Part shown: piece by piece, positions 1,035 to 8,597 of the stretch | Numbering within the stretch: the first letter of the stretch is position 1 | Layout: every line of letters begins with the position of its first letter | Origin: an uncultured beta proteobacterium | Lineage (GTDB): Bacteria; Pseudomonadota; Gammaproteobacteria; Burkholderiales; Burkholderiaceae_C | Length of the DNA: 8,597 nt | Direction of reading: 5' to 3' | Assembly (NCBI GenBank): GCA_903920405.1 | Contig: CAIXMC010000028.1 | Location: forward strand, 1 to 8,597 | The notes under the pieces: generated by a model | Databases searched by the model: none | What the model saw: only the letters and a program-made list of their open reading frames with translations | Told to the model about the DNA's origin: nothing | Program-made: the position numbers and the translations under genes

Positions 1035-3641
1035 TTAGCCCAACGCCTCCAATAGCTCGGTCTCTATGGTGATTTGGTCCCGGTTGTTTTGCAGTGCTGT
1101 GCCTTGAATCAAAAAAGTGTCTTCCACCCGTTCACCCAGCGTGGATATTTTGGCCAGTTGCAAGTTGATTTTGTGTGTAGCCAAAACTCTGGCCACGCTG
1201 TACAACAGCCCTACCCTGTCACTGGCTGAAATGTTGAGCAGCCAGCGCTGTGCTTTGTCATCAGGTTTTAGACTGACGCGCGGTGTCAGGGGGAAACTTT
1301 TCACACGCCTGGATACACGGCCTCGACTGACCGCGGGCAATGGACCTGCTGCGGCAATCACACGCGCCAGATCAACCTCGATCATGCTGATGAGTTCACG
1401 GTAATGGCCGGTCAGTCGGGTGGTCACGATCTGAAAGGTATCTAACGCATAGTTGTTTTTGGTGGTGTGGATGCGGGCATCCAGAATGCTGAAGTCACTG
1501 CGGTCAAAATAACCACAAATTCGGGCAAACAAATCTTCCTGGTCCGGGGTATAGACCAACACCTGCAGGCCTTCGCCTACGGGAGAAGGACGTGCTCTGA
1601 CCACGGGGGTTTGAAGCCCCAGATAGCGTGACAGCTTGCGTGTGTGCCAGGCAATTTCAACTGCATCGTGGCGCATGAAATAACCCACGTCGAGCGTCGC
1701 CCACAGGGCTTTGTGCGACTCAAACGGTTGGGCGTGCAGGGCGAGTTCAATCAGGGCATCGCGCTGGCGCTCTTGAACTTCAGCATGAACATCTGGCGCG
1801 TGACCGCCGAGTGCGCGTGAAGTGGATCGGTACAAGTCTTCCAGCAGTTTGCCCTTCCAGGCATTCCAGACCGTGGGGCTGGTGCCACGGATATCGGCCA
1901 CTGTGAACAGGTAGAGCGCCGTCAGGGTGCGTTCGTTGCCAACACGTTTGGCAAAGTCGGTAATCACGTTGGGGTCACTGTGGTCTGCTTTTTGGGCAAG
2001 ATTGCTCATGGTCAGGTGTTCTTGCACCAGAAATTCAATCAATCGGGCATCTTCACCCGTGATGTCGTATTGTTTGCAAAAGCGCCTGACCTCTACAGCT
2101 CCCAGACTGGCGTGGTCGCCGCCTCTGCCCTTGGCTATGTCGTGAAACAGGGCTGCCACATACAACACCCAGGGTTTTTCCATGCCACTGGCCAATTGCG
2201 AGCAAAAAGGATATTCGTGGGCATGTTCGGCAATGAAAAAACGCCGCACATTGCGAAGCACCATCAAAATGTGCTGATCGACTGTATAAACATGAAACAG
2301 GTCGTGCTGCATCTGCCCCACAATTTTGAGAAAGACTTTCAGATAGCGCCCCAGAACCGAGGTCTCGTTCATCAGCCGCAGGGTGTGGGTCAATCCATGA
2401 GGGTGCAATAAAATTTGCTTGAAGGTGCTGCGATTGACAGGATCGTGGCGAAACGAGCGGTTCATCAAAACCCGTGCGTTGTACAGCGCACGCAGGGTTC
2501 TCGCTGATAAACCTTGCAGCCCTGTATGGCGTTGATACACCCAAAAAGTTTCCAGAATGGCGTGCGGTTTACGCCGATACAGATCGTCACTGACGACCTC
2601 GACCATGCCCGCCTTGTCCAAAAAATCCTCAGTCAAGGATCGCAGCGGGGGAGGCGGATACGTACTTGCAGTTAACCGATCTTCAATATTAAGCAGAAAA
2701 ATCTGGTTGAGCTGAGTCACGGCCTTGGCAGCCCAGTAGTAGTGGCGCATCAGCTCTTCGCTTGGGCGAACAAAGGCGCGATGATCGGTGCTGACATCAG
2801 GTGCTTTGTATCCAAAAGACTGGGCAATAGCGTTTTGAAGGTCAAACACCAAACGGTCTTCGCGGCGGTGAGCCATCAGGTGCAGACGTGTGCGAATCAG
2901 CCTCAACATGGCTTCGTTGCGCTTGATTTGCCTGACCTCAAACGCTGTGGCCAGGCCAGCTTTGGCCAGTGCATCCCAGTCGCTGCCCAAACCTGCCGCT
3001 TTAGTGACCCACAAAATCACCTGCAAGTCACGCAGACCGCCGGGTGACTCTTTGCAGTTAGGCTCCAATGCATAAAAGGTATCGTCAAACTTGCTGTGAC
3101 GCTGCTGCATCTCCAGTGTTTTTGCTACAAAAAATGAGTGGGGATGGATGGCAGAAAAAAATTTCTCATGAAATTCATCAAATAAGGTCTGGCTGCCGGT
3201 GATCAGGCGTGCTTCAAGCAGCGATGTTTGCACAGTCACATCTTTGGCAGATTCGCTCAGGCATTCTTCAATCGTTCGCACACTAGAACCCATGTCCAGA
3301 CTGGCATCCCAACAACTGCCGATGAACCCCTCAATGCGTTCTCTCAGGACATCATCCGTATCGACAGACTGATCATCGGGCAACAACACAAGGACATCAA
3401 TATCAGAATAGGGGAAAAGTTCCTCGCGACCAAACCCACCGACAGCCAACAAGGCAAAAGGCGCGTCCAGGCCGGCTTGTTCCCATAATTGCTTCAAACA
3501 GGCATCAGCCAGGCGCGACAAACCCAGTAAAAAGGCATGAACTTCCCCAGTAGAAGATCCAGCCGCCATAGAGGCAAGTAAAGCAGCCTTGTTAACTCGA
3601 AATGTGTTGGGCATGGGTGTGAAAGGGGTGTTGCTGACCAT
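1035..3641 (-). CDS. glnD: Bifunctional PII uridylyltransferase / uridylyl-removing enzyme
   Basis: GlnD is the cytoplasmic glutamine sensor of the Ntr system. It uridylylates PII proteins (GlnB/GlnK) when glutamine is low and removes UMP when glutamine is high. Numbered from ATG 3641 (868 residues), the N-terminal nucleotidyltransferase domain has GGFGREELFPYSDID at about 68-82, with catalytic D80 and D82, and the family motif SPGGLRDLQ near 199. The HD domain that removes UMP carries FHVYTVDQH near 449 and the metal-binding LFHDIAKGRGGDH, with H500 and D501. Two glutamine-binding ACT domains follow, at about 691-765 and 800-868. All domains are complete. Start choice: the frame extends to TTG 3665, but ATG 3641 has AAAGGA just upstream (spacing short), and ATG 3614 is a further option without a Shine-Dalgarno sequence. 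From 3641 it overlaps the end of map by 50 bp, so translational coupling is likely. Identity is secure; only the start is open. Confidence 0.97.
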   Translation of the reverse strand: MVSNTPFTPMPNTFRVNKAALLASMAAGSSTGEVHAFLLGLSRLADACLKQLWEQAGLDAPFALLAVGGFGREELFPYSDIDVLVLLPDDQSVDTDDVLRERIEGFIGSCWDASLDMGSSVRTIEECLSESAKDVTVQTSLLEARLITGSQTLFDEFHEKFFSAIHPHSFFVAKTLEMQQRHSKFDDTFYALEPNCKESPGGLRDLQVILWVTKAAGLGSDWDALAKAGLATAFEVRQIKRNEAMLRLIRTRLHLMAHRREDRLVFDLQNAIAQSFGYKAPDVSTDHRAFVRPSEELMRHYYWAAKAVTQLNQIFLLNIEDRLTASTYPPPPLRSLTEDFLDKAGMVEVVSDDLYRRKPHAILETFWVYQRHTGLQGLSARTLRALYNARVLMNRSFRHDPVNRSTFKQILLHPHGLTHTLRLMNETSVLGRYLKVFLKIVGQMQHDLFHVYTVDQHILMVLRNVRRFFIAEHAHEYPFCSQLASGMEKPWVLYVAALFHDIAKGRGGDHASLGAVEVRRFCKQYDITGEDARLIEFLVQEHLTMSNLAQKADHSDPNVITDFAKRVGNERTLTALYLFTVADIRGTSPTVWNAWKGKLLEDLYRSTSRALGGHAPDVHAEVQERQRDALIELALHAQPFESHKALWATLDVGYFMRHDAVEIAWHTRKLSRYLGLQTPVVRARPSPVGEGLQVLVYTPDQEDLFARICGYFDRSDFSILDARIHTTKNNYALDTFQIVTTRLTGHYRELISMIEVDLARVIAAAGPLPAVSRGRVSRRVKSFPLTPRVSLKPDDKAQRWLLNISASDRVGLLYSVARVLATHKINLQLAKISTLGERVEDTFLIQGTALQNNRDQITIETELLEALG

Positions 3642-4455
3642 ATTCCTTTGCAAAATCCGTGACAAAAGCCGGCAAGGGTGGGCTGCCTGCCGATAGCGTC
3701 AGCACTTCATAACCTGTGGGTGTGACCAACACCGTATGTTCCCATTGGGCAGAGAGGGAGCGGTCTTTGGTGACGATAGTCCAGCCATCGCCCACCTCGC
3801 GCACTTCACGGCGACCGGCGTTAAGCATAGGCTCGATGGTGATGGTCATTCCTGACTCGAGTTTTTCAAGCGTGCCGGGCTGACCATAGTGAAGGATCTG
3901 GGGTTCTTCATGAAAAGCGCGCCCAATGCCGTGCCCGCAATATTCACGTACCACGCTGAGGCCATGCCTTTGCGCAAAGGTTTGAATGGCAAAACCAACA
4001 CTCCCCAGGTGAACACCTTCTTTCACCTGCATGATGCCTTTCCATAAGGCTTCGTAAGTAAGGTGGCAAAGCCTTTTTGCCGCCACCGAGACATGGCCGA
4101 CCATGAACATGCGGCTGCAATCGCCATGCCAGCCGTCTTTGATGAGGGTCACATCCACATTCACAATGTCGCCATTTTTCAAAGGCTTGTCATTGGGAAT
4201 ACCGTGGCAGACCTGGTGATTGACGGAAGTACAAATCGACTTGGGGTAAGGGTATTGACCTTTGGGGGAATAATGCAGAGGCGCTGAAACAGCACCCAAC
4301 ACACGGGTGGTGTGTTCTTCGGCCAGACGATCCAGTTGATTGGTGGTCATGCCGAGTTTGACAAAAGGTGTCAGGTAGTCCAGAAGTTCGCTGGCCAGCC
4401 TGCCAGCCACGCGCATTTTGGCAATATCGTCAGTGTTTTTGTAGGTGATCGGCAT
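3592..4455 (-). CDS. map: Type I methionine aminopeptidase
   Basis: This cytosolic metalloenzyme removes the initiator Met from nascent proteins after deformylation and is normally essential. The 287-residue protein has the complete pita-bread metal site in order: D101 (NVDV), D112 (GWHGDCSRMF), H175 (YCGHGIGRAFHEEP), E208 (ITIEPM) and E239 (WEHTVLV). The substrate-facing H84 (VCHGIP) is also present. There is no N-terminal zinc-finger extension. It is slightly longer than the roughly 264-residue E. coli enzyme because of a tail after about residue 265 that ends in a His-rich stretch (HPFHTHAQHISS); part of that tail is the sequence overlapping glnD. ATG 4455 gives the standard MPITYKNTDDIAKMRVAG start. 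No strong Shine-Dalgarno sequence precedes it, and it overlaps the upstream gene's stop by 26 bp. The mRNA just upstream is C/A-rich and likely unstructured. map beside glnD is a common betaproteobacterial pairing. Confidence 0.97.
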   Translation of the reverse strand: MPITYKNTDDIAKMRVAGRLASELLDYLTPFVKLGMTTNQLDRLAEEHTTRVLGAVSAPLHYSPKGQYPYPKSICTSVNHQVCHGIPNDKPLKNGDIVNVDVTLIKDGWHGDCSRMFMVGHVSVAAKRLCHLTYEALWKGIMQVKEGVHLGSVGFAIQTFAQRHGLSVVREYCGHGIGRAFHEEPQILHYGQPGTLEKLESGMTITIEPMLNAGRREVREVGDGWTIVTKDRSLSAQWEHTVLVTPTGYEVLTLSAGSPPLPAFVTDFAKEYGQQHPFHTHAQHISS

Positions 4456-6367
4456 GGGCTTTGAAATCTACCAGGAAGATGGGTTGGTCAATGGGTTGGT
4501 GGTTCTGGTCGTGGTTGGGCTGTTCGTTGCGTTGCAATAGCAGGCTCAAGGTATGGTCTTGCTGCCAGCGGGTTCTGTCCAACACAGGTTCAGCAAAGCC
4601 TAAATCATCCGGCCACAGCGTGCTGGTGTGATCCGGTGCGTAGTGGGGGGCGGGTAAATAAGTGGCGACCATGCGGTTGTGGGTCAGGTCACCACGGTAG
4701 ATAACGTAAGCATTGTCGCGCTCGTCCAAAACAATGTCGGGGCGGCTGATGGGAATTTGCAGTGTGCCATCACCTTGCAGATGAAAAGCCTGGGTTCGGT
4801 CAGAGATCACCTGGTGATGCCAGCTCTTGCCGTCAAAGCGCAGGTGTTGGTATTGGGGAATGGCATTGGCATCGTCGGCATAAAACACAATGTGAGGGTG
4901 GTTGCGACTGTCGAGCGCCATGCTGCATTGGTTCATGAGATTGCACCCCGGTGACACAGGGTGAATGGTTTCTGCATTGACCTGTGTGATGGGGAGTTGG
5001 TAGGCGCGTCCTTGTGAAGTTGTCCAGTTCAAGCCGTTGTTGGCGGAACGGGCATAACAGATATTGATGTTATTGATGCGATGCTCTTCACCCAGAGTGT
5101 GGGTTCGCCATACAAACGACAGGTGCAGTGTGCCATCTGTGCCTACAGCGGGGTGATTCCAGTAGGCGTTGCTGGTCCAGGGTTTTTGTTCTGCACCGCT
5201 CAAAATGGCCTGGGGATGGTCTGCCCAGATTTGGCTGCTTTCGTCATAGGTTTTAAGGCGGGCGGTGCCCTTGTTATGCACACCATCGCGGTAAAGCAGA
5301 GTGAGTGGGTAGCCGTGATGAGGCAGGATAAACGTGGGGTATGTCACCTGCTCTTCATGAACGCCCGTCATGGCCAGTTCGTCCGTCCAGTGGGTGATGG
5401 TGTTGGGCGCTGTACTGCGGCGGTAACGCAAATGTGTGGCATGGAGGGCGTAACTGATGTGCAGGTGACCCGCGCGATCCACTCCCAAACTGATGCTGTT
5501 GTGAGCATCTTTCAGGTTGTAGTGACCCGGCATGTCATAGGTTTGCAAAGTCAGGGTGGCCAGGTGGCGCTGCACCAGTCGCAAAGTGTGATCATCTACA
5601 TAAAAACCAGTGGTTTGCAAACCTTGGTAAGTCAATATGCCATGATGCCTGAAGATCACGGTGTTGATGGTATTGCCTGCCCAGGCCATGCCCAAAGGGT
5701 GCTGTGCCGTGATGGAAAGTAGGAAGGGGTAGGACGGCGGAGGCAAGCTGTGGGGCAATGCGTGGGGGGCTGGTTTTTCAGCTTCATGGGGGTTGTGGGT
5801 ATTGTGGGTGTCATCGGTCTTTTTGGCCAACCAGGGCGACTGTGCCACCAGCCCCATGTCAGTCAGTTGCTGCTGCGCGCGTGCAGGGGCTAACAGGTTG
5901 GCATCCAGATGGGGCGCGCCCGTGTGGATAGCCTGTTCAAAGTGTTGACGGGTTTGCAGCGTTTGCCCGGCAGCAGCCGCTGCACGCGCCAAACTGTTGT
6001 GGACACCTGAAATAAGCACCTGGCTGATGATCTTTTTGCTACACCCCCAATCTTGTGCCAAACGGGTAAATTGGCGGGCTGGTTCGGTGTGGCCAAGTTG
6101 GGCATGGCCAGCAGCACACAGCAAAGCGAGCTTGGCACGGTCAGGGTGATGCTGCAGGGTTTCCAAACTAATCTTTGCCAGATTTTGCCAGTCGCCAAAC
6201 TGCCATTGGGAACGACTGCACTCCAGCAAATTTTCATCGTAGGGCACTAAACTTTGGGTATCATTTTGGCCTGTAACGCGCTCTGGCTCTGCGTGAGTAG
6301 CTATGATTTTTGATTGTGATGGACGACGTGTGAACCAGGATGTGATGTGAGTGAAAAAGCGGGTCAT
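4430..6367 (-). CDS. TPR-like plus BNR_4-type beta-propeller protein, possible polysaccharide-active
   Basis: This 645-residue protein has three parts. Residues 42-170 are helical and TPR-like (QWQFGDWQNLAK, TLQHHPDRAKLALL, GHTEPARQFTRLAQDWGC); I recall this module beside surface-polysaccharide glycosyltransferases and methyltransferases. Residues 183-215 are a His/Pro/Asn-rich linker. Residues 216-615 look like a BNR_4 propeller, with repeated G-x-L-H-I/L-S blade strands such as DRAGHLHISYALH and TDGTLHLSFVW. Within it HNSISLGVD (H289), YALHATHLRYRRS (H308), VTYPTF (Y343) and LLYRDGVHNKG (R360) resemble the catalytic His/Tyr/Arg set of PL24/PL25-type ulvan lyases as I remember them. That is inference, not an alignment. 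No signal peptide or membrane helix is seen; the start MTRFFTHITSWFTRRPSQSK is basic without a hydrophobic core, so the product seems cytosolic. ATG 6367 lacks a clear Shine-Dalgarno sequence. The stop lies 26 bp inside map, so the two are probably cotranscribed. The substrate is unknown. Confidence 0.8.
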   Translation of the reverse strand: MTRFFTHITSWFTRRPSQSKIIATHAEPERVTGQNDTQSLVPYDENLLECSRSQWQFGDWQNLAKISLETLQHHPDRAKLALLCAAGHAQLGHTEPARQFTRLAQDWGCSKKIISQVLISGVHNSLARAAAAAGQTLQTRQHFEQAIHTGAPHLDANLLAPARAQQQLTDMGLVAQSPWLAKKTDDTHNTHNPHEAEKPAPHALPHSLPPPSYPFLLSITAQHPLGMAWAGNTINTVIFRHHGILTYQGLQTTGFYVDDHTLRLVQRHLATLTLQTYDMPGHYNLKDAHNSISLGVDRAGHLHISYALHATHLRYRRSTAPNTITHWTDELAMTGVHEEQVTYPTFILPHHGYPLTLLYRDGVHNKGTARLKTYDESSQIWADHPQAILSGAEQKPWTSNAYWNHPAVGTDGTLHLSFVWRTHTLGEEHRINNINICYARSANNGLNWTTSQGRAYQLPITQVNAETIHPVSPGCNLMNQCSMALDSRNHPHIVFYADDANAIPQYQHLRFDGKSWHHQVISDRTQAFHLQGDGTLQIPISRPDIVLDERDNAYVIYRGDLTHNRMVATYLPAPHYAPDHTSTLWPDDLGFAEPVLDRTRWQQDHTLSLLLQRNEQPNHDQNHQPIDQPIFLVDFKAHADHLQKH

Positions 6368-6404
6368 GATGTGTCATTGGGTGGTGGCATGGCTGTGAAT
6401 AGAC

Positions 6405-6424
6405 ATGGTCACGCAAGTGACCAT
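6405..6424. promoter_or_regulatory. Perfect palindrome with 8-bp arms, candidate operator in the divergent promoter region
   Basis: ATGGTCAC (6405-6412) and GTGACCAT (6417-6424) are exact inverted copies separated by GCAA. The centre lies about 47 bp from the propeller gene's ATG and about 65 bp upstream of the -10 proposed for the sensor gene. Sixteen paired positions in a 20-bp site is the size and symmetry of a dimeric repressor or activator site. As RNA it would also form an 8-bp hairpin in the propeller gene's leader. The regulator is not identifiable. Confidence 0.45.
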
Positions 6425-6453
6425 CGTGGTGAGGGGTGCAATTTGAACCGCAC

Positions 6454-6482
6454 CTGAAACGCACCCTCGATTAGACTATAAC
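6454..6482 (+). promoter_or_regulatory. Candidate sigma-70 promoter for the sensor gene
   Basis: CTGAAA (6454-6459, four of six consensus) and TATAAC (6477-6482, five of six) are separated by 17 bases. The predicted start near 6489 gives a leader of about 120 nt to ATG 6608, or 190 nt to ATG 6680. Two CGCACC direct repeats 11 bp apart (6449-6454 and 6460-6465) flank the -35. The opposite strand of the -10 reads TATAGT, but I find no good -35 for it, so a promoter for the propeller gene is not established here. Confidence 0.4.
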
Positions 6483-6607
6483 CAAAATTTTCTTCCCGAT
6501 AAGGATACGCCCCTTGGCACTGCTCTGCCTTCCTGGTGAAAGGCTGATTTTGGGAAGTTATTTTTAGCCATATCCTCATCTCATCTCATCAAGCACAGGT
6601 AGCAAAA
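6483..6607. other. Leader region of the sensor gene with a CTCAT triple repeat
   Basis: No gene is visible here. Three tandem CTCAT units (6575-6589) lie 18 bp before the first ATG. AGGT at 6597-6600 is a plausible Shine-Dalgarno sequence seven bases before ATG 6608. No riboswitch-like conserved structure is recognised. Confidence 0.4.
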
Positions 6608-8425
6608 ATGATGGAATCGAGAATGACACCTTGTGGAAGCGGCATCCTGCCGCTTTTTACAAAGTGCCAATTGAACAAAATGAATACAGCCAGTAGCCCA
6701 AAGTACACTGCAATTTCACGTTTTGTGACGCCTGTCACCTTGGTCGTGTCTGCCCTGATGTGCCTTCTGCTTATGACCGGCTTCCTCTTGCGAGCCAGCT
6801 ATTTGCAACAGATTGTTGAAGCTGAAAGCGAGACTCAAAATCTTGTGGGAGTGCTTGAATCGAGGTTGTCGAGCGAATTTTCACGTGTTAATGGGATGCT
6901 CACTTTTATTGCCAATGAGGTGCGATCAGATCCCTTTCACCGCCGATCTGCCGCCGTTTCCGCCACAAAGACTCAGCACCTCGTTCGCATGGTGACCACC
7001 TTTCCTGAACTGGCAGGGCTGTTCGCCTTTGATGCTAATGGCACCATGCAAATGACTTCTGACCCCCGCGTGAAGTCGTTTAGCGTTGCTGACCGTCCCC
7101 ATTTCCAGATGCTGCGTGACCATCCGAAAACCAGCATCGTCTTTTCAGAACCGCTTCTATCACGATCTACCGGCCAATGGTCGATGATCCAGTCGCGATC
7201 CATCCGCGATGATGCGGGGCGGTTTCTGGGCACTGTCAATGCTGTTCTTCATATTGACGTGTTCTCAGACCTGTTTCTCAGCACGGATGTCGGACAGGAT
7301 AACAGCTTGATCTTGCTGCGGCGCAGCGATAACTTTAAACTGATCGCACGCATACCGAGATCGAACGAGGAGGACTTCAACCAGCCCCTACCTGCGAATA
7401 ATCCTATCCGCCAGCGCATTGCATCGGGTGACAGACAAGGCACACTGTCGTATGTGGCAAGCACCAATGGTGTGCGACGCATCGCCAGTTTTTCCAGACT
7501 GGATGATCGCTTTCCGTTCTATGTGCAGGTTGCTTTGTCTGAAGATCGCTATTTGGCCGAATGGTGGCAGCAAGTGATGTGGATGGGACTCATTGTCGTG
7601 ACTTTGTTGCTTTCATTCGTAACGGCTCTTGTTCGTCTTGACAAGAACAAGCGCCTGTTGTTCAAAGAGAGTGAAGCACACAAAGCGCTTTTACGCTACG
7701 CCAGCGATGGCATCACCATCCTGGATGTGAATGCCAATATCGTTGAAGTCAGCGATTCATTTTGCACCATGCTGGGCTACTCGTCTGATGAGATGATTGG
7801 GATGAATGCTTTCAAATGGGACTGCGGATTCAACAGTCACGATGAATTTATGGCGGCTTTCAGTCAGCGGTTTCTTGGCCCGACAAGATCACTGTTCCAG
7901 TCACGTCACCGTCGCAAGGATGGAAGCATTTACGATGTCGAGATCAGTGGTCAAATGATCGAGCTGGAGGGTCATGCGATGGTGTACCACTCCTCTCGCG
8001 ACATGACGGATCGCATTCAAGTGCAAAATTTACTCAATGAACGGCACAAGGCGCTTCAGATCAGTGAAGCACAGATGGTCACATCGCAGCGGATCGGCGG
8101 TATTGGGTCGTGTGTTTATGACATCAACACCGACACCATTCGGGCATCGACCCAAATGCTGCACATATTTGGGTTCCCAACCGACATCACGGATCACCCT
8201 CTGGATGACTTTTTAGCTTGTGCACCTGAACAACGTGATCGGGTTCGCCAGACTTTGGCGGGCAAGTTTGGGTTCCCATCCGACATCAAGGATTACCCTC
8301 TGGATGACTATCAGAGTTGTCTGGCTGTGGGTATGGATGACTTTCTCACCAAGCCCATCTTGTTTGATGTCCTGAAATCGACTGTCAGTACGTGGCTACC
8401 GATACCCCCACAGTCCAGCGTTTAG
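6608..8425 (+). CDS. Membrane Cache-PAS sensor protein, remnant of a hybrid histidine kinase lacking its kinase core
   Basis: 605 residues from ATG 6608. Order: membrane helix 1 (about 41-63), a periplasmic dCache-like domain (68-317, with LAGLFAFDANGTM and FSVADRPHFQMLRD typical of this fold), membrane helix 2 (324-342), a complete PAS domain (357-470, from ALLRYASDGITILDVNANIVEV to the RRKDGSIYDVE strand), the beginning of a second PAS (493-552), then DDYQSCLAVGMDDFLTKPI (566-584). This last piece matches the end of a receiver domain, including the conserved Lys in TKPI. No His phosphorylation box, HATPase N/G boxes, GGDEF or EAL motif is present, nor is the receiver's phospho-acceptor Asp. 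The protein can probably still sense an extracytoplasmic ligand but has no visible output. Start: ATG 6608 has AGGT upstream. ATG 6680 gives a more natural N-terminus (helix 1 at residues 17-39) and avoids translating a terminator-like hairpin, so it is a serious alternative. It may be a decayed gene kept in frame. Confidence 0.8.
   Translation: MMESRMTPCGSGILPLFTKCQLNKMNTASSPKYTAISRFVTPVTLVVSALMCLLLMTGFLLRASYLQQIVEAESETQNLVGVLESRLSSEFSRVNGMLTFIANEVRSDPFHRRSAAVSATKTQHLVRMVTTFPELAGLFAFDANGTMQMTSDPRVKSFSVADRPHFQMLRDHPKTSIVFSEPLLSRSTGQWSMIQSRSIRDDAGRFLGTVNAVLHIDVFSDLFLSTDVGQDNSLILLRRSDNFKLIARIPRSNEEDFNQPLPANNPIRQRIASGDRQGTLSYVASTNGVRRIASFSRLDDRFPFYVQVALSEDRYLAEWWQQVMWMGLIVVTLLLSFVTALVRLDKNKRLLFKESEAHKALLRYASDGITILDVNANIVEVSDSFCTMLGYSSDEMIGMNAFKWDCGFNSHDEFMAAFSQRFLGPTRSLFQSRHRRKDGSIYDVEISGQMIELEGHAMVYHSSRDMTDRIQVQNLLNERHKALQISEAQMVTSQRIGGIGSCVYDINTDTIRASTQMLHIFGFPTDITDHPLDDFLACAPEQRDRVRQTLAGKFGFPSDIKDYPLDDYQSCLAVGMDDFLTKPILFDVLKSTVSTWLPIPPQSSV
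6637..6658 (+). terminator. Terminator-like or REP-like hairpin at the 5' end of the sensor gene
   Basis: AAGCGGC (6637-6643) pairs perfectly with GCCGCTT (6649-6655) across the loop ATCCT. The last two Ts of the stem run on into a 5-T stretch (6654-6658). It lies between ATG 6608 and ATG 6680 of the sensor frame. This is the form of a rho-independent terminator or a small interspersed REP-type hairpin, which is odd inside a coding sequence. If translation begins at 6680 it would be a leader attenuator. Confidence 0.5.
8168..8309 (+). repeat. Pair of 43-bp imperfect direct repeats, 99 bp apart, in the sensor gene
   Basis: The copies at 8168-8210 and 8267-8309 match at 40 of 43 bases by my count. 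They start TTTGGGTTCCCA and end CCCTCTGGATGACT. The 99-bp offset equals 33 codons, so the frame is kept. The encoded copies are FGFPTDITDHPLDDF and FGFPSDIKDYPLDDY. The first belongs to the second PAS domain. The second joins directly to the receiver-domain tail, marking a likely recombination junction. Confidence 0.85.
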
Positions 8426-8449
8426 GATGAAGGCGCTGGGCTGCACACT

Positions 8450-8473
8450 TCACTGAGACGAGTGAGTTTTTTT
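8450..8473 (+). terminator. Rho-independent terminator after the sensor gene
   Basis: TCACT (8450-8454) pairs with AGTGA (8461-8465) across a 6-base loop, extendable by one T-G wobble, and is followed at once by seven Ts (8467-8473). The stem is short and not GC-rich, but the T-run and the position 25 bp past the stop codon fit termination of the sensor transcript. Confidence 0.55.
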
Positions 8474-8480
8474 GTATAAC

Positions 8481-8535
8481 AAATCGGCCTCTAGCGCCCG
8501 TCCTGCTTGCATAGTTAGCTATATTTTTGATAGTA
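8481..8535. repeat. Interspersed-repeat-like sequence of Comamonadaceae style
   Basis: The stretch contains AATCGGCCTCTAGCGC followed, about 25 bp on, by AGCTATATTTTTGATAG. From memory, paired blocks of this kind ('CTAGAGGCCGATTT' next to 'AGCTAT...ATAGC') recur in intergenic regions of Comamonadaceae. I cannot verify copy number here. The surrounding bases 8474-8597 show no gene on either strand. Confidence 0.4.
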
Positions 8536-8597
8536 AGAAAGAACGGACTAATAGTTCAGCGCCAAGGTAGCTGATGGTTCAGACGCTGATGCAGGAG

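What the first reader, a model, noticed from the sequence alone, without database searches (positions are those of the whole stretch)
8090..8425. Hybrid sensor kinase collapsed in frame: PAS start fused to receiver-domain end
Sequence shows a PAS domain broken off after about 60 residues, followed by DDYQSCLAVGMDDFLTKPI, which fits the beta5/alpha5 end of a receiver domain. Between these a normal hybrid kinase would carry the rest of PAS, HisKA, HATPase and most of the receiver, several hundred residues. All of that is absent, yet the frame is open and the gene has a plausible promoter and terminator. It may be a fresh deletion derivative, or an output-less sensor that titrates ligand or heterodimerises with a paralogous full-length kinase and so acts as an inhibitor.
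Basis: partly seen in the sequence, partly recalled or inferred. Interest (0 to 1): 0.7.

Follow-up and report, generated by a model that had tools for sequence, protein, structure and literature searches.

The report
Sensor kinase missing its kinase core
In one draft bacterial genome a membrane sensor gene lacks the whole kinase engine that its relatives carry, most likely through a single in-frame deletion, so its protein would probably sense but be unable to signal on its own.

Summary
The ORF 6608-8425 (likely start ATG 6680, 581 aa) has a dCache domain, a complete PAS, the first part of a second PAS (PAS_B), then jumps at 8309|8310 to the last 37 residues of a receiver; no HisKA or HATPase is found. 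At the same place in a sister MAG (L028; three neighbouring genes 95-97% identical in protein) the gene is an 852-855 aa hybrid kinase whose last 37 residues are identical, so the tail belongs to this locus. Against relatives with the longest architecture 555-559 residues (about 1.67 kb) are missing. No base is shared at the join by the templates held. The fusion is a singleton among 13 proteins found. AlphaFold gives the junction region very low confidence. Most likely this is a recent in-frame deletion derivative without kinase output; inhibition of a 70%-identical paralog is possible but untested. Assembly error is unlikely, not excluded. The sister gene shows a different internal gap (PAS_A/PAS_B), so the family seems to lose modules repeatedly.

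The parts
6608..6679 (+). upstream extension of the ORF, probably not translated; contains a strong hairpin (6631-6662)
   Evidence: DNA homology to sister L028 begins only at 6669; hairpin -16.4 kcal/mol, z -3.19
6680..8425 (+). core-less hybrid kinase gene, 581 aa from the likely start ATG 6680
6821..7321 (+). dCache_1 sensor domain (residues 72-238 of the 605-aa ORF)
   Evidence: Pfam PF02743 E 2.5e-12, 47.3 bits, cut-off 45; PDB 3lif_A E 2.5e-15
7703..8011 (+). complete first PAS (PAS_A), residues 366-468
   Evidence: PF13426 E 8.9e-13, profile 1-103 of 103; modelled with pLDDT about 80-92
8048..8309 (+). N-terminal part of second PAS (PAS_B), cut off after D567
   Evidence: 65% identity to G000:C133 over residues 481-571; junction by comparison with C248, C133 and L028
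8168..8309 (+). two copies (8168-8210, 8267-8309; 40 of 43 identical) of a 99-bp (33-residue) internal PAS_B duplication shared with paralogs; not a deletion scar
   Evidence: same duplication with the same 99-bp spacing in C248 and C133
8309..8310 (+). deletion junction (codon Tyr568)
   Evidence: PAS templates match up to 8309, sister receiver matches from 8310
8310..8422 (+). receiver-domain tail (Q569-V605, with the TKP motif), lacking the phospho-acceptor part
   Evidence: 37 of 37 residues identical to L028; DNA 99.1% over 8310-8536

Best explanation
This is a hybrid sensor histidine kinase gene that lacks the rest of PAS_B, the HisKA and HATPase domains and most of the receiver, most likely because of one recent in-frame deletion of about 1.3-1.7 kb, and its protein is likely to be a membrane-anchored sensor without kinase output. 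Shown: the domain content, the sharp PAS_B-to-receiver switch at 8309|8310, a hybrid kinase with the same tail at the same locus in a sister MAG, and relatives with the longer architecture. Inferred: that the parent had Cache-PAS_A-PAS_B-(PAS_C)-HisKA-HATPase-REC; that the join arose by end joining or slippage with few or no shared bases (an open frame after such a join has a one-in-three chance and is no evidence of function); and that the product can neither autophosphorylate nor receive phosphate, because the HisKA histidine, the ATP site and the receiver aspartate are all gone. The likely fate is decay, tolerated because the genome has many other histidine kinases including close paralogs. 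A dominant-negative effect on a paralog, through mixed Cache/PAS dimers, is the main functional alternative.
For: Synteny: glnD, map and the 645-aa gene lie in the same order in L028, with protein identity 660/691, 273/287 and 628/645. blastn pairs window 6669-7659 with L028 4999-5989 (89.6%) and 8310-8536 with 7453-7679 (99.1%); window 7660-8309 and L028 5990-7452 have no partner in that comparison. L028's middle encodes PAS_C, HisKA, HATPase and REC. P0012, P0005 and P0006 carry PAS_B, PAS_C, kinase core and receiver; 555-559 residues lie between the LDD motif of PAS_B and the receiver tail (436 in P0002, which lacks PAS_C). Searching with residues 540-605 gave 13 proteins; only the window's own covers the whole region; the other 12 cover at most 61% and all 12 carry HisKA, HATPase and Response_reg. 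AlphaFold: Cache and PAS_A confident, the PAS_B remnant mostly 61-76, residues 531-559 below 50. HisKA: 49 matches in the genome (48 over the cut-off), none on C28.
Against: The Cache region is not evolving neutrally: dN/dS 0.439 against the sister (0.454 and 0.445 for window and sister against C248), so no decay is visible; but the deletion may be too recent to show. One contig of one MAG only, so fixation in the population is unknown. The parent gene of this very strain is not seen; its architecture is inferred from relatives.
Confidence: 0.66

Rival explanations
1. The core-less protein is a working inhibitor: it binds ligand and forms mixed dimers with the paralog on C248 or others, lowering their kinase output.
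For: C248 is 70% identical over residues 33-571 and reads on through HisKA to its contig end; Cache, the flanking long helices and PAS_A are intact and confidently modelled; the sensor part shows constraint (dN/dS 0.439). Inhibition of one sensor kinase by another is reported for RetS and GacS (PMC5992135, outline and abstract read).
Against: Two of the three RetS mechanisms in that abstract (taking phosphate from GacS, phosphatase activity) would need parts that this protein lacks (inference). The fusion is a singleton. No promoter-like site upstream. The constraint is no stronger than in the kinase-bearing relatives and may predate the deletion.
Confidence: 0.17
2. Assembly artefact: the real gene is a full-length kinase and the assembler joined two pieces.
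For: MAG of 458 contigs, 89.8% complete, 4.2% contamination; kinase cores are repeated and contigs break there (C248 stops just after HisKA, C244 begins inside it). C28 itself ends 55 bp after a dispersed repeat. The fusion is on one contig only.
Against: The PAS-side match stops at 8309 and the receiver-side match starts at 8310; among the loci held (not the whole genome) no exact match across the junction is longer than 11 bases, shorter than usual assembly k-mers (recalled). The longest word shared by three PAS_B templates and the sister receiver end (TGGATGACTTT, 11 bases) lies about 25 bases further on and was not the join. No stretch of G000 matches the missing core better than 87% (C244, partial; C133 82% over nearly the whole). 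87% is not far below the 89.6% of the Cache region, but C244 has its own tail and permease neighbour and its own counterpart in the sister genome (G060:C95:327-2794, 90% over all 2451 bases asked), so it is another locus. An unassembled piece stays possible.
Confidence: 0.12
3. The window keeps PAS_A and PAS_B by recombination with a paralog (gene conversion), and the join is a by-product of that exchange rather than of a simple deletion.
For: Cache divergence from the sister is 10.4% (gaps included) against 5% in the flank, while the tail is only 0.9%; the L028 gene lacks PAS_A/PAS_B altogether.
Against: PAS_A+PAS_B and the Cache region are about equally distant from C248 (dS 0.321 and 0.377), as expected if they descended together; the linker DKNKRLLF-ESE-HKALL is shared with C248, so L028 looks like the lineage that lost PAS_A/PAS_B.
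Confidence: 0.05

Closest known systems
Kinase-bearing family members: P0004 (L028 ortholog), P0005, P0012, P0002
   Same: Cache/TM (P0004, P0005, P0002), PAS_A/PAS_B modules (P0012, P0002; PAS_B in P0005) and receiver tail; same locus in L028
   Different: They carry HisKA, HATPase and a whole receiver; the window gene does not
P0011 (424 aa, Cache plus receiver, no kinase)
   Same: Another relative in which the kinase core is missing in frame; the only one of 15 Cache+Response_reg proteins among the 120 listed (of 246 found) without HisKA/HATPase
RetS (Pseudomonas aeruginosa), inhibitory hybrid kinase acting on GacS
   Same: Precedent for a sensor kinase that lowers another kinase's output (PMC5992135, abstract)
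   Different: RetS keeps its kinase region (recalled; its transmitter phosphatase activity is in the abstract) and works partly by phosphatase and phosphotransfer

Membership tests
Hybrid sensor histidine kinase | HisKA dimerisation/phospho-acceptor domain | tested here: not met
   no Pfam HisKA in the protein at E up to 1; none on contig C28
Hybrid sensor histidine kinase | HATPase_c ATP-binding domain | tested here: not met
   not listed at E up to 1; alignment gap against all five kinase-bearing relatives
Hybrid sensor histidine kinase | receiver domain with phospho-acceptor Asp | tested here: not met
   only the last 37 residues align; the VVEDN and LMDLHMP stretches are absent (that these hold the acidic pocket and the acceptor Asp is recalled)
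Hybrid sensor histidine kinase | descent from such a gene at the same locus | tested here: met
   syntenic hybrid kinase in L028 with identical tail
dCache_1 sensor protein | dCache_1 domain | tested here: met
   PF02743 47.3 bits, cut-off 45
dCache_1 sensor protein | transmembrane helices on both sides of the Cache domain | tested here: inconclusive
   long helices 11-83 and 293-340 in the model with hydrophobic stretches in the sequence; no TM predictor was run
Inhibitory partner kinase (RetS-like action) | physical interaction with and inhibition of a partner kinase | not testable with these tools
   only a candidate partner (C248) is seen

The most novel reading that the evidence does not exclude
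A recurrent route, in a fast-remodelling Cache/PAS hybrid-kinase family, by which paralogs are turned by single in-frame deletions into core-less sensor proteins that act as dominant-negative partners of their full-length siblings.
Probability: 0.08. Interest if true: 0.65.

Novelty: new member of a known kind. Interest (0 to 1): 0.3.

Why it matters
It is a well-documented snapshot of how sensor kinases lose modules: two orthologs at one locus carry two different internal gaps (the window lacks the kinase core, the sister lacks PAS_A/PAS_B). If the short protein is made and stable it would be a natural test of whether a Cache-PAS sensor without a kinase can interfere with its paralogs. As a function it is probably a dead end.

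Tried and rejected
Rejected: repeat-mediated collapse (the repeat is also in PAS_B of two paralogs). Rejected: the tail belongs to another C-terminal family (it is identical to the sister's receiver end). Looked for the missing core elsewhere in G000 with L028's core DNA: 33 matches, among them 82% (C133, nearly full), 87% (C244, partial) and 86% (C248, 282 bases); C244 proved to be another locus. Looked for the downstream neighbour seen in L028 (start of ileS, in L028:7660-8300): 15 matches, all to its first 35-55 bases (the dispersed repeat), so the 3' surroundings in G000 cannot be checked. Looked among 60 genomes (G000 plus 59, 35 of them same genus): outside G000 the best match was 198.8 bits at 31% identity (G034), so no close copy was seen there; the match list was cut. 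Paper searches gave no listed paper whose title or abstract start names a natural core-less hybrid kinase: (listings only; I opened one paper, PMC5992135, outline and abstract). The first codon-based script read the kinase gene in the wrong frame; its kinase-gene figures were discarded and repeated; its figures for three neighbouring genes (dN/dS 0.074-0.216) stand.

Full report
What is there. The window is the whole contig C28 of a draft genome of 458 contigs. The ORF 6608-8425 encodes 605 aa; DNA homology to the sister locus starts at 6669 and the sister protein P0004 begins MNTASHPK, so ATG 6680 (581 aa) is the likely start. It has a dCache_1 domain and one complete PAS by Pfam, and the first part of a second PAS, recognised by 65% identity to paralog C133 over residues 481-571 (Pfam does not list it). 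Then comes a receiver tail.

The same locus in a sister genome. L028 (Loclat_bin-01332, record title 'uncultured beta proteobacterium') carries glnD, map, a 645-aa gene and an 852-855 aa hybrid kinase in the same order (the names glnD, map and ileS are recalled from the look of the proteins). The window matches it in three blocks: 1594-6486 (95.0%), 6669-7659 (89.6%) and 8310-8536 (99.1%). In this comparison the window alone has 7660-8309 (PAS_A and start of PAS_B), and L028 alone has 5990-7452 (PAS_C, HisKA, HATPase, most of REC). The last 37 residues are identical. Thus the tail is this locus's own receiver end. PAS_A/PAS_B DNA of the window finds six places in the sister genome at 78-84%, none of them in this gene.

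Reconstruction (inference). C248 in the same genome has Cache-PAS_A-PAS_B-HisKA up to its contig end; P0012 has PAS_A-PAS_B-PAS_C-kinase-REC (its N-terminus is open), P0005 and P0006 have Cache-PAS_B-PAS_C-kinase-REC, P0002 has Cache-PAS_A-PAS_B-kinase-REC. The simplest parent is Cache-PAS_A-PAS_B-(PAS_C)-kinase-REC. The window lost 436-559 residues, depending on the relative used; the sister lost PAS_A and PAS_B. P0011 shows a further, different loss of the kinase core.

The junction. PAS templates (C248, C133) match the window up to 8309 and the sister's receiver from 8310, so with the templates held no base is shared; as this strain's own parent is unseen, a few could be hidden. No locus held matches exactly across the junction for more than 11 bases. 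The 43-nt repeat ends at the junction, but both paralogs have the same duplication at the same 99-bp spacing (30/43 and 34/43 identical, 40/43 in the window), so it predates the deletion. The higher likeness of the two copies in the window is unexplained.

Is it more than chance or error? The fusion is found once: 13 proteins match residues 540-605, and the 12 others cover at most 61% and have a kinase core. That fits a recent event or an error; the lack of shared sequence at the join speaks against an assembler error, but reads were not available. The nearest stretch of G000 to the missing core, C244 (87%), is a separate locus with its own counterpart in the sister genome. The MAG is incomplete (89.8%).

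Function. Without HisKA, HATPase and the receiver aspartate no phosphotransfer is expected (established knowledge of two-component systems). The model places confident Cache and PAS_A, a doubtful PAS_B remnant (pLDDT mostly 61-76) and residues 531-559 below 50. Selection on the Cache region is the family's usual (dN/dS 0.439; 0.454 and 0.445 for window and sister against C248); polarised against C248 the window branch has 24.2 nonsynonymous and 14.8 synonymous changes, the sister 9.8 and 10.2 (not tested for significance). This shows neither decay nor function after the deletion. Three neighbouring genes have dN/dS 0.074-0.216. The Cache region differs from the sister by 10.4%, above the 5% of the flank, and the tail by 0.9%, below it; under a uniform 5% both are unlikely (6e-12 and 7e-4), so the gene is a mosaic in divergence.

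Verdict. An ordinary but well-resolved domain-loss derivative of a hybrid kinase, most likely without output. The inhibitor idea stays open and untested.

Noticed in passing
window 8460-8542: Dispersed repeat of about 75-80 bp just 3' of the gene: 39 further matches at 89-97% identity in the same genome (40 of 111 candidates were scored); no Rfam family at gathering threshold in the window. The contig ends 55 bp after it and homology to L028 stops near its end (8536).
   Followed up: partly
L028:5989-5990: The sister kinase lacks PAS_A and PAS_B: its linker jumps from DKNKRL to a PAS_C start, a second in-frame module loss at the same locus.
   Followed up: partly
P0011 (424 aa): A relative with a Cache domain cut late and joined in frame to a whole receiver, kinase core absent; 6 member sequences, one 2.3-kb contig.
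   Followed up: partly
window 6631-6662: Strong hairpin (AAGCGGC...GCCGCTT followed by T's) inside the upstream extension of the ORF; the stretch 6487-6668 has no blastn match in the sister locus.
   Followed up: partly
window 6669-7659 vs 8310-8536: Uneven divergence from the sister: 10.4% in Cache, 5% in the flank, 0.9% in the tail and 3' region; may reflect recombination.
   Followed up: partly
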